DNA from: an uncultured Anaerococcus sp.
GTDB taxonomy: Bacteria; Bacillota; Clostridia; Tissierellales; Peptoniphilaceae
Direction of reading: 5' to 3'
Length of the DNA: 9,781 nt
Assembly (NCBI GenBank): GCA_943913365.1
Contig: CALTXV010000023.1
Span: 1 to 9,781, forward strand
Of this stretch, positions 8,071-8,265 are shown one piece after another (position 1 is the stretch's first letter; each line of letters opens with the position of its first letter). Below the pieces are notes generated by a model that had not been told where the DNA came from, did no database searches, and saw nothing but the letters and a program-made list of their open reading frames with translations. The position numbers were made by a program, and so were the translations under genes.

Positions 8071-8097
8071 AAAAAAAGAGGAGCCCTCAGGCTCCTC
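8071..8097 (-). terminator. Attenuator terminator in the metY leader
   Basis: On the minus strand GAGGAGCC (8090-8097), loop TGAG and GGCTCCTC (8078-8085) make a perfect GC-rich 8-bp stem followed at once by seven T (8071-8077). It is the strongest terminator in the window. It lies 18 nt after the stop of the Met-rich leader ORF and 173 nt before metY, so transcripts must pass it to reach metY. Confidence 0.92.
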
Positions 8098-8143
8098 GTA
8101 GTCTAATCCCAAAACTAGAGGTTTTTGGATACAAGAAAGCCTG
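8088..8143 (-). promoter_or_regulatory. Antiterminator pairing in the metY leader
   Basis: On the minus strand CAGGCTTTCTTGTA (8130-8143) pairs with TACGAGGAGCCTG (8088-8100): 13 pairs, six of them the continuous CAGGCT/AGCCTG, with one bulged U and two G-U pairs. The 3' arm covers the whole 5' arm of the terminator (8090-8097), so the two folds exclude each other. The loop holds a nested hairpin, CCAAAA (8123-8128) with TTTTGG (8109-8114), enclosing the leader ORF's stop codon. Confidence 0.7.
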
Positions 8144-8207
8144 CCCATGAATCCAGCATGTGCATCATACCCATCATCATATTGTCATTTTGATTAGTGC
8201 AGTACAT
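8115..8207 (-). CDS. Met-rich leader peptide of metY (30 codons)
   Basis: A 30-residue ORF with a strong ribosome binding site, AAGGAGG (8213-8219), 5 nt before the ATG. The peptide begins MYCTNQNDN. It then has the cluster MMMGMMHM at codons 10-17, giving seven Met of 30 including the start, and ends DSWAGFLVSKNL before TAG (8115-8117). It starts about 23 nt into the predicted transcript and ends just before the attenuator terminator. Its layout matches leader peptides of trp, his, leu and thr operons, in which a run of the regulated amino acid makes ribosomes stall when charged tRNA is short. Here the gene downstream makes methionine's precursor, so Met codons are the expected sensor. It is probably not a functional protein in its own right. 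A stable Met/His metal-binding micropeptide is the alternative, but would not explain the downstream RNA folds. Confidence 0.8.
   Translation of the reverse strand: MYCTNQNDNMMMGMMHMLDSWAGFLVSKNL
8127..8154 (-). promoter_or_regulatory. Early (anti-antiterminator) hairpin in the metY leader
   Basis: GGATTCATGGG (8144-8154) pairs with TTCTTGTATCC (8127-8137): nine pairs with two U-U mismatches, loop CAGGCT. It overlaps the 5' arm of the antiterminator (8130-8143), so it would block it and allow the terminator. Its 5' arm starts 3 nt after Met codon 17, where a stalled ribosome would cover it. The pairing is moderate in strength. Confidence 0.5.
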
Positions 8208-8236
8208 ATTAGCCTCCTTGTTTTTTATTAATATGT

Positions 8237-8265
8237 ATCTTATACTATCTTTTTATTAATATCAA
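8237..8265 (-). promoter_or_regulatory. Promoter of the metY leader
   Basis: On the minus strand TTGATA (8260-8265), a 17-bp spacer and TAAGAT (8237-8242). Transcription should start near 8230, giving a short 5' UTR before the leader ORF and about 330 nt before metY. Confidence 0.7.

What the first reader, a model, noticed from the sequence alone, without database searches (positions are those of the whole stretch)
8071..8265. Methionine-codon leader peptide and classical ribosome-mediated attenuator upstream of metY
Seen: promoter (TTGATA-N17-TAAGAT); AAGGAGG; a 30-codon ORF with a Met cluster at codons 10-17 (MMMGMMHM); then three overlapping pairings. These are an early hairpin 8154-8144/8137-8127, an antiterminator 8143-8130/8100-8088 (13 bp, one bulge), and a terminator 8097-8090/8085-8078 plus seven U. 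The geometry fits. A ribosome stalled with Met codon 17 (8157-8159) in the A site would cover roughly to 8145, masking the early hairpin's 5' arm and leaving the antiterminator arm, which starts at 8143, free. A ribosome that reaches the stop (8115-8117) would cover the antiterminator region, so the terminator forms. Established: trp/his/leu/thr operons work this way; Firmicute met genes are usually controlled by SAM riboswitches or Met T-boxes, neither of which I see. Inference: metY is switched on when charged Met-tRNA is scarce. I know of no well-characterised Met-codon attenuator of this type, so it may be a new regulatory class.
Basis: partly seen in the sequence, partly recalled or inferred. 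Interest (0 to 1): 0.94.

Follow-up and report, generated by a model that had tools for sequence, protein, structure and literature searches.

The report
Methionine-codon switch upstream of metY
Just upstream of metY, a gene for making methionine, an Anaerococcus-like bacterium carries a tiny reading frame crammed with methionine codons beside a transcription-stop hairpin, likely a switch that would turn the gene on when methionine runs short; comparable methionine- and cysteine-codon leaders sit in front of sulphur-amino-acid genes in other Clostridia, where they are predicted to work the same way.

Summary
Promoter-like boxes, AAGGAGG, a 30-codon ORF with 6 Met in codons 10-17, an antiterminator pairing and a terminator with seven U lie upstream of metY. 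Four relatives carry the same leader, each before metY. Its 3' half keeps nucleotides rather than amino acids, as pairing would demand. A relative in another genus (G116) has a divergent Met-cluster leader whose terminator is predicted to switch at the Met codons. G116 belongs to an RNA family (model R1; 80 of 115 genomes searched) with Met/Cys clusters, antiterminator covariation, and sulphur-amino-acid-type genes next in 47 of 50 inspected of 148 hits. R1 does not match the window. Ribosome-mediated attenuation by Met (and Met/Cys) codons is the best reading: a known kind, with a specificity I found in no paper listed and no Rfam family. No expression data exist. Main weakness: in the window's clade equilibrium folding mostly favours the terminator even with a stalled ribosome, so antitermination would have to be kinetic.

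The parts
8237..8265 (-). promoter-like boxes TTGATA-N17-TAAGAT
   Evidence: sequence; TTGACA/TTGATA with 16-17 spacing in the five clade leaders and G116 (regex for four; G003 and G116 read)
8212..8221 (-). SD region ACAAGGAGGC of ORF1; also segment 1, pairs with 8140-8131
   Evidence: 50 of 50 pair cells in five leaders; z -3.1 to -4.1 against shuffles
8115..8207 (-). ORF1, 30-codon leader peptide plus stop
   Evidence: homologues in G001, G020, G022, G003 and P0001
8157..8180 (-). Met cluster, codons 10-17 (MMMGMMHM)
   Evidence: sequence; kept with one codon fewer in G020 and G003
8130..8143 (-). segment 2, CAGGCUUUCUUGUA: antiterminator 5' arm, also the anti-SD arm
   Evidence: nucleotides invariant in five leaders
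8106..8130 (-). hairpin carrying the ORF1 stop codon (8130-8123/8114-8106)
   Evidence: 33 of 40 cells
8088..8100 (-). segment 3: antiterminator 3' arm
   Evidence: 60 of 65 cells
8071..8097 (-). intrinsic terminator, stem 8097-8090/8085-8078, seven T
   Evidence: 38 of 40 cells
7973..8053 (-). ORF2, second short ORF MTYKKRLRSFRSTLWDERIISLIFKN*
   Evidence: open in the window and four relatives; block SFRSTLWDER has more synonymous than nonsynonymous codon changes in ten of ten pairs
8053..8064 (-). SD region of ORF2, pairs with 8034-8023
   Evidence: 50 of 60 cells, one two-sided change
7986..7995 (-). anti-SD arm in ORF2 (UCUCCUUAAU), pairs with metY SD 7915-7906 or with 8035-8028
   Evidence: leader:metY-start duplex z -7.1 in the window, -3.8, -3.9, -3.5 in G001, G020, G003, -0.6 in G022
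8009..8014 (-). CUUUGG, pairs with metY bases 7893-7888
   Evidence: fold; 18 of 18 cells with letters, two relatives cut short in the alignment
7906..7915 (-). metY SD region AUUAAGGAGA
   Evidence: sequence
6605..7897 (-). metY, O-acetylhomoserine sulfhydrylase
   Evidence: TIGR01326 610.9 bits

Best explanation
Upstream of metY the window holds a 30-codon, Met-rich reading frame overlapping one arm of an antiterminator and followed by an intrinsic-terminator hairpin, and this is predicted to be a ribosome-mediated transcription attenuator that would let RNA polymerase into metY when ribosomes stall on the Met codons for want of charged Met-tRNA. Anatomy and conservation are shown; translation, stalling and termination are inferred. 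A ribosome held with codons 10-18 in the A site would leave segment 2 (8143-8130) free to seize segment 3 before the terminator's second arm is made. A ribosome that passes covers segment 2, so the terminator would form. With no ribosome, the SD of ORF1 is predicted to pair with segment 2, which also leaves the terminator to form. Read-through transcripts would then meet a second gate, ORF2: its 3' half pairs with the metY SD and start, and a ribosome past ORF2 codon 17 is predicted to open them. What ORF2 senses is unknown.
For: Leader in 4 of 130 family genomes, each before metY (a fifth BLAST hit, G119, is 29 nt inside another ORF); the three genus genomes with close MetY (84-91% identity) all have it. 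Codon changes in the ORF1 3' block are 0-1 synonymous against 1-5 nonsynonymous per pair, so RNA rather than peptide is kept. Pre-terminator antiterminator probability 0.82-0.90 with A site on codons 6-18, then 0.57, 0.30, 0.00 at 19, 20, 21 in the window; the same course in four relatives. G116: antiterminator 1.00, 0.98, 0.96 at Met 10-12 and terminator 0.99 from codon 15, at equilibrium. Met/Cys clusters (at least 4 of 7 codons) in 32 of 200 metY upstream regions against mean 0.1, maximum 1 in 40 shuffle sets, 0 on the reverse strand. R1 leaders: two-sided changes in 8 of 15 antiterminator pairs, 0 of 500 shuffles; median P(terminator) 0.00-0.06 with A site on the three codons before Arg, at least 0.96 from one codon after (48 leaders, 10 depart); sulphur-amino-acid-type gene next in 47 of 50 loci. 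Five of 13 family and order metY loci carry SAM-I riboswitches before metY, while G001, G020 and G022 have no SAM-I match.
Against: In the window's clade the full-length RNA favours the terminator at nearly every ribosome position (window P 0.84 or more; below 0.5 only at one codon in G020 and two in G003), so antitermination must be kinetic. If RNA behind the ribosome may pair across it, SD:segment 2 pairing and the terminator dominate at the Met codons. No two-sided change supports any ORF1 stem in the clade; five sequences are few. G022's antiterminator duplex is unremarkable (144 of 1000 shuffles as good). R1 does not hit the window or its four relatives at E<=1, so kinship to R1 is not shown. 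Other genomes with fairly close MetY (G089, G077, G165) show no Met cluster leader. Severe Met lack should also cut initiation. No transcript or protein data.
Confidence: 0.8

Rival explanations
1. ORF1 is a nascent-peptide arrest sensor (SecM/TnaC-like, recalled): a small molecule such as Met or SAM stalls the ribosome through the peptide DSWAGFLVPKN.
For: WAGFLV is invariant in five leaders and P0001.
Against: The block shows almost no synonymous changes and several nonsynonymous ones, pointing to RNA pairing; the G116 and R1 leaders share Met/Cys codons and pairing arms, not this peptide.
Confidence: 0.08
2. The leader RNA is an undescribed riboswitch or protein-binding element (for SAM, Met or homocysteine), and the ORF is incidental.
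For: Strong nucleotide conservation; metY genes elsewhere use SAM-I.
Against: Start codon, SD, frame and Met cluster are kept; divergent leaders share Met/Cys codons and the switch point follows the codons.
Confidence: 0.07
3. Regulation is mainly at translation: SD sequestration of ORF1 and of metY, with the terminator a minor or constitutive element.
For: SD:segment 2 pairing is the best conserved helix (50 of 50) and the metY start is strongly paired with ORF2 in four of five.
Against: A terminator with seven or more T is kept in all five leaders and alternates with segment 2; R1 leaders show a terminator switch of their own.
Confidence: 0.15
4. Chance: a Met-rich ORF and fortuitous hairpins in AT-rich DNA.
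For: None found.
Against: Conservation in relatives and the shuffle controls.
Confidence: 0.01

Closest known systems
Enterobacterial trp/his/leu/thr leader-peptide attenuators (recalled)
   Same: short ORF with codons for the pathway's amino acid, competing antiterminator and terminator
   Different: codons are Met; the conserved competing pairing uses the ORF's own SD; a second ORF and SD-sequestering pairing follow
Leucine-rich attenuator peptide for branched-chain synthesis in S. aureus (PMC5794164, listing and abstract start only)
   Same: classical leader peptide in a Firmicute
   Different: branched-chain, not sulphur amino acids
Histidine leader peptides of hisS/hisZ in bacilli (PMC2965389, passages)
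   Same: leader peptide in Firmicutes where T-boxes are usual
   Different: His codons, aminoacyl-tRNA synthetase genes; the passages seen name no Met leader peptide
Cysteine-run leader peptides in Actinobacteria (PMC1262725, passages; later polycysteine work seen only in listings)
   Same: sulphur-amino-acid codons in a leader before cys genes
   Different: there no conserved terminator hairpins (mycobacteria) and no structures before methionine operons were found; here terminator and antiterminator are present
SAM-I riboswitch RF00162 and T-box RF00230
   Same: same place before met genes, same output
   Different: neither matches this leader; they sense SAM or uncharged tRNA without translating a leader (recalled)
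R1 leaders described here (family of G402, unnamed; named members include records labelled Roseburia sp., L022, and Clostridium fessum, L032; also G116)
   Same: Met/Cys cluster, antiterminator arm directly after it, terminator, metY or another sulphur gene next
   Different: the window's clade is not matched by R1 and has a Met-only cluster

Membership tests
ribosome-mediated (trp-type) transcription attenuator | short ORF with SD upstream of the gene | tested here: met
   window and four relatives; translation itself not tested
ribosome-mediated (trp-type) transcription attenuator | cluster of codons for the amino acid of the regulated pathway | tested here: met
   6 Met in codons 10-17; MetY is an O-acetylhomoserine sulfhydrylase
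ribosome-mediated (trp-type) transcription attenuator | mutually exclusive antiterminator and intrinsic terminator | tested here: met
   both use 8097-8090
ribosome-mediated (trp-type) transcription attenuator | ribosome position at the cluster decides between them | tested here: inconclusive
   window clade: yes before segment 4 is made, mostly no at equilibrium; G116 and 38 of 48 R1 leaders: yes at equilibrium
ribosome-mediated (trp-type) transcription attenuator | protector stem 1:2 masked by the stalled ribosome | tested here: inconclusive
ribosome-mediated (trp-type) transcription attenuator | termination responds to charged tRNA | not testable with these tools
   no expression data
R1 Met/Cys leader RNA (this report) | match to covariance model R1 | tested here: not met
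   no hit at E<=1 in window, L001 or L083-L086
SAM-I riboswitch | RF00162 match in the leader | tested here: not met
   also none in genomes G001, G020, G022
T-box | RF00230 match in the leader | tested here: not met
ermC-type translation attenuator (for ORF2) | leader peptide plus SD of the next gene held in an alternative stem | tested here: inconclusive
   pairing with the metY start in four of five, peptide-like conservation; no inducer known

The most novel reading that the evidence does not exclude
Many Clostridia run their sulphur-amino-acid genes (metY, metQ/metN, cystathionine enzymes) through a family of Met- and Met/Cys-codon leader peptides that arose or diverged several times; the window is a Met-only form with a second gate, a conserved arrest-like peptide ORF2 related to the NFRxGRM peptides before other metY genes, the R1 leaders, ORF2 and these peptides being marked by a CGA-AUG codon pair.
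Probability: 0.55. Interest if true: 0.92.

Novelty: new variant of a known kind. Interest (0 to 1): 0.85.

Why it matters
Leader-peptide attenuation is textbook biology, yet the paper searches listed no Met case. Met is the awkward amino acid, because its lack should also hit initiation. A Met or Met/Cys codon sensor would show how that is solved, would stand in for SAM-I riboswitches where none were found, and gives a codon-precise prediction (stall on Met-Cys-Cys, release at Arg) that ribosome profiling and term-seq can test directly in many genomes.

Tried and rejected
Early hairpin as protector: rejected on conservation. A mini-ORF MDWSLL before ORF2: not kept in G003, read as the ORF2 SD region. 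Tier-2 stem A:B as a second terminator: large loop and no run of T after it in the relatives (sequence). Copies of the leader in phage or plasmid records, of a 20-nt piece of it in viral contigs, or of this MetY in viral contigs: none. A Met-only rule over the first loci gave six loci with hits, among them L001 and L051; the Met/Cys rule found the family. Pattern scan of 248 genomes was too noisy and its list was cut. G116's leader stretch has no match in the other 13 genomes of its genus; their hits lie in the neighbour gene or in A-rich DNA; no protein match. Pairing of NFRxGRM ORFs with the metY start is significant in only 13 of 51, so a general SD-masking role is not claimed. Covariation on nine sequences was weak: helix 1, 573 of 5000 shuffles reach it; helix 2, 23 of 5000 on eight sequences with hand-anchored stems; 69-70 of 500 for the whole on the MAFFT alignment. 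The larger set decided it, on an alignment fitted to the model and including the nine model sequences. Duplicated loci between the collections were not removed before the counts; one region under 300 nt was dropped (200 of 201). Of 148 matches (my sum of its table), the 30 given loci and 20 others chosen by me were inspected; some are near-identical (L367-L369). In one search a filter skipped L349's metQ; I count it. In one search the G003 block was cut two codons short by the script.

Full report
What is there. On the minus strand between rlmD (8464-9780, TIGR00479) and metY (6605-7897, TIGR01326 at 610.9 bits) lie, in order, promoter-like boxes, an SD, a 30-codon ORF1 with six Met in codons 10-17, a terminator with seven T, a second ORF of 26 codons (ORF2), and the metY SD. 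Rfam shows nothing in this region at E<=1.

Relatives. The leader DNA matches 5 of 130 genomes of the family. Four (G001, G003, G020, G022) are true copies before metY (in G003 the contig ends inside metY); the fifth (G119) is 29 nt inside another ORF. The three genus genomes with close MetY (84-91%) all have it; none of the nine full-length MetY homologues at 44-47% in the genus has a Met cluster leader by the rule. A 52-residue protein from a 566-nt contig, P0001, is a further copy of the peptide, apparently read through TAG as Gln. The peptides read MYCTNQNDNMMMGMMHMLDSWAGFLVSKNL, MYCINSNNKMMMGMMHMMDSWAGFLVPKNR, MYYNHSNNKMMGMMHMMDSWAGFLVPKNY, MYSIHSDEKMMMGMMHMMKTWAGFLVPKNR and MYYDHSNNKMMGMMRMMNSWAGFLVPQNS.

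RNA, not peptide, is kept in ORF1. In the block from the Met cluster to the stop, pairs of leaders differ at 0-1 codons synonymously and 1-5 nonsynonymously (G003 compared over 15 codons), while GGGCAGGCTTTCTTGTA is invariant. No ORF1 stem has a two-sided change. Against 1000 shuffles the antiterminator duplex reaches z -3.2 in the window, -2.3, -2.4 and -2.7 in three relatives, but -1.0 in G022; the SD duplex is -3.1 to -4.1 in the five.

Switch geometry. With a ribosome footprint assumed to end 17 nt past the first P-site base and only downstream RNA folded, the antiterminator forms before segment 4 is made with probability 0.82-0.90 for A-site codons 6-18 in the window and collapses at 19-21; the four relatives run from 0.68-0.91 to 0.08 or less at the same place. 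Once segment 4 is present the terminator wins at equilibrium at nearly all positions (exceptions: G020 at codon 13, G003 at codons 10 and 17), so the switch would be kinetic. Allowing RNA upstream of the ribosome to pair favours SD:segment 2 and the terminator; only a ribosome at codon 6, over the SD, gave a clear antiterminator in the window. Both are results against a simple equilibrium model.

A second gate. ORF2 is open in all five, preceded by GGAG in four (GTAG in G020). Its block SFRSTLWDER shows 1-4 synonymous and 0-2 nonsynonymous codon differences per pair, more synonymous in ten of ten, so it looks translated. Its region pairs with the metY SD and start: duplex z -7.1, -3.8, -3.9 and -3.5, but -0.6 in G022, where ORF2 instead runs to two bases before the metY start. 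In the fold, P(metY SD unpaired) rises from 0.00-0.23 at ORF2 codon 16 to 0.58-0.80 at codon 18 in window, G001, G020 and G003; in G022 the free RNA is already open (0.85), though it dips to 0.19 at codon 16. In 248 order genomes the ORF2 region matches 13; four are these leaders, nine are 20-38 nt pieces. I read ORF2 as a translation-coupled opener of metY; its signal is unknown.

A divergent Met leader. G116 (MetY 69%, another genus of the family) has MKNLFNINNMMMRMQYSRAYNNDWASVVRAFCIDSSPHNQI before metY. There the antiterminator (CUCCCGGGCA/UGCCCGGGAG) is 1.00-0.96 with Met 10-12 in the A site and the terminator 0.99 from codon 15, at equilibrium; duplex z -5.2. The other MetY genes found in the family at E<=1e-150 (G089, G077) lack a Met leader. 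Five of 13 family and order metY loci scanned carry SAM-I riboswitches; G001, G020 and G022 have no match genome-wide, G003 one and G116 two, and the five genomes have 11-18 T-box matches each, not all over the gathering score.

A wider family. A class search with G116 MetY found close MetY in 109 of 391 genomes. Over 200 metY upstream regions, SD-preceded ORFs with at least 4 Met/Cys in 7 codons occur in 32, against a mean of 0.1 in 40 shuffle sets and 0 on the other strand; among the other residue classes tested Leu/Ile show 17 against 4.9 (maximum 12), the rest less. Of 17 such leaders tried, 16 had a terminator to score (L334 equals L333 in peptide). Terminator probability is below 0.5 with the ribosome in or just past the cluster (in several also before it) and high at the end in 13; L026 dips only to 0.6, L273 does not dip, L263 dips before its cluster; L038 had no scored terminator. 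Nine related leaders made model R1. R1 hits 80 of 115 genomes of G402's family at E<=0.01, 148 matches by my sum. On 57 hits (53 distinct, the nine model sequences included), 93.7% of antiterminator cells pair, 8 of 15 pairs have two-sided changes, and 0 of 500 shuffles reach either; sliding the partner by one drops pairing to 54-58% (alignment fitted to the model). In 49 distinct blocks CGA stands in 47 and the next ATG in 48; before it ATG (42), TGT or TGC (41) and TGT or TGC (42). In 48 of the hits (two of them model sequences) the median terminator probability is 0.00-0.06 with those three codons in the A site and at least 0.96 from one codon past CGA; 10 of 48 depart. Of 50 inspected loci the next gene is MetQ/NlpA-type in 26, MetY in 6, a MetY-like paralogue in 5, a Cys/Met PLP enzyme in 9, MetN-type in 1, LysR-type in 1, an iron alcohol dehydrogenase in 1 and none (contig end) in 1. 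HMM scans of a subset agree at family level: NlpA PF03180 in 10 of 10 MetQ-type proteins scanned, MetY over its cut-off in 2 of 2; NCBIfam MetQ, MetN, MetY-like and cystathionine models score below their cut-offs. Rfam has no gathering-level match in 14 loci with Met/Cys leaders. R1 does not hit the window's clade: same design, membership not shown.

The NFRxGRM peptides. In 53 of 201 metY upstream regions a peptide with the motif N[FWYIV][RK]x[GERQK]RM lies roughly 75-200 nt before metY; in the 80 loci of the first set (535 kb, both strands) a stricter motif occurs 16 times, each time there. Its first Arg uses five Arg codons (in four loci the residue is Lys), its second is CGA in 53 of 53. 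Four loci (L240, L249, L263, L273) carry both a Met/Cys leader and this peptide, the same order as ORF1 and ORF2, whose DERM also uses CGA-ATG in four of five; two of these four (L263, L273) failed the switch test. The parallel is suggestive only.

Known or not. Leader peptides in Firmicutes are reported for His (PMC2965389, passages) and branched-chain amino acids (PMC5794164, listing); Cys leaders in Actinobacteria (PMC1262725, passages). The searches listed no Met or Met/Cys leader attenuator in the titles and abstract starts shown; the lists were cut (20 of 36 and 12 of 59), and most subscription papers are not held.

Verdict. The mechanism is of a known kind; Met and Met/Cys specificity, the two-gate layout and the R1 family look new. 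All functional steps are predictions.

Noticed in passing
upstream of metY in 53 of 201 loci, e.g. L253, L326, L249: Short peptides with N[FWY]RxGRM-type motif, conserved at amino-acid level, with the second Arg always CGA followed by ATG (53 of 53).
   Followed up: partly
R1 leaders, NFRxGRM peptides, window-clade ORF2 (CGA at window 8002-8000): A CGA-AUG codon pair recurs in three kinds of leader (the window itself has CGA-ATT); reason unknown.
   Followed up: partly
L341: An R1 leader whose next long ORF is an iron-containing alcohol dehydrogenase, where relatives have metQ; metQ may have been lost there.
   Followed up: no
L021 and L027, about 1.5 kb after the metY start: A further ISCCRM-type stretch downstream of metY, perhaps a leader of the next gene.
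   Followed up: no
L123, L125, L127: Two SAM-I riboswitches in tandem before metY.
   Followed up: no
G022:C3:209207-209443 (beside the leader of L085/L089): A T-box match on the opposite strand directly beside the leader, below the gathering score.
   Followed up: no
G017:C3:152707-152955 and G033:C1:1587938-1588153: Short C-terminal pieces of a MetY 82% and 72% identical; the leader was not found in these genomes; probably remnants.
   Followed up: partly
window 606-1514: Protein with a lipoprotein-signal-like start and no NCBIfam match at E<=0.001.
   Followed up: no
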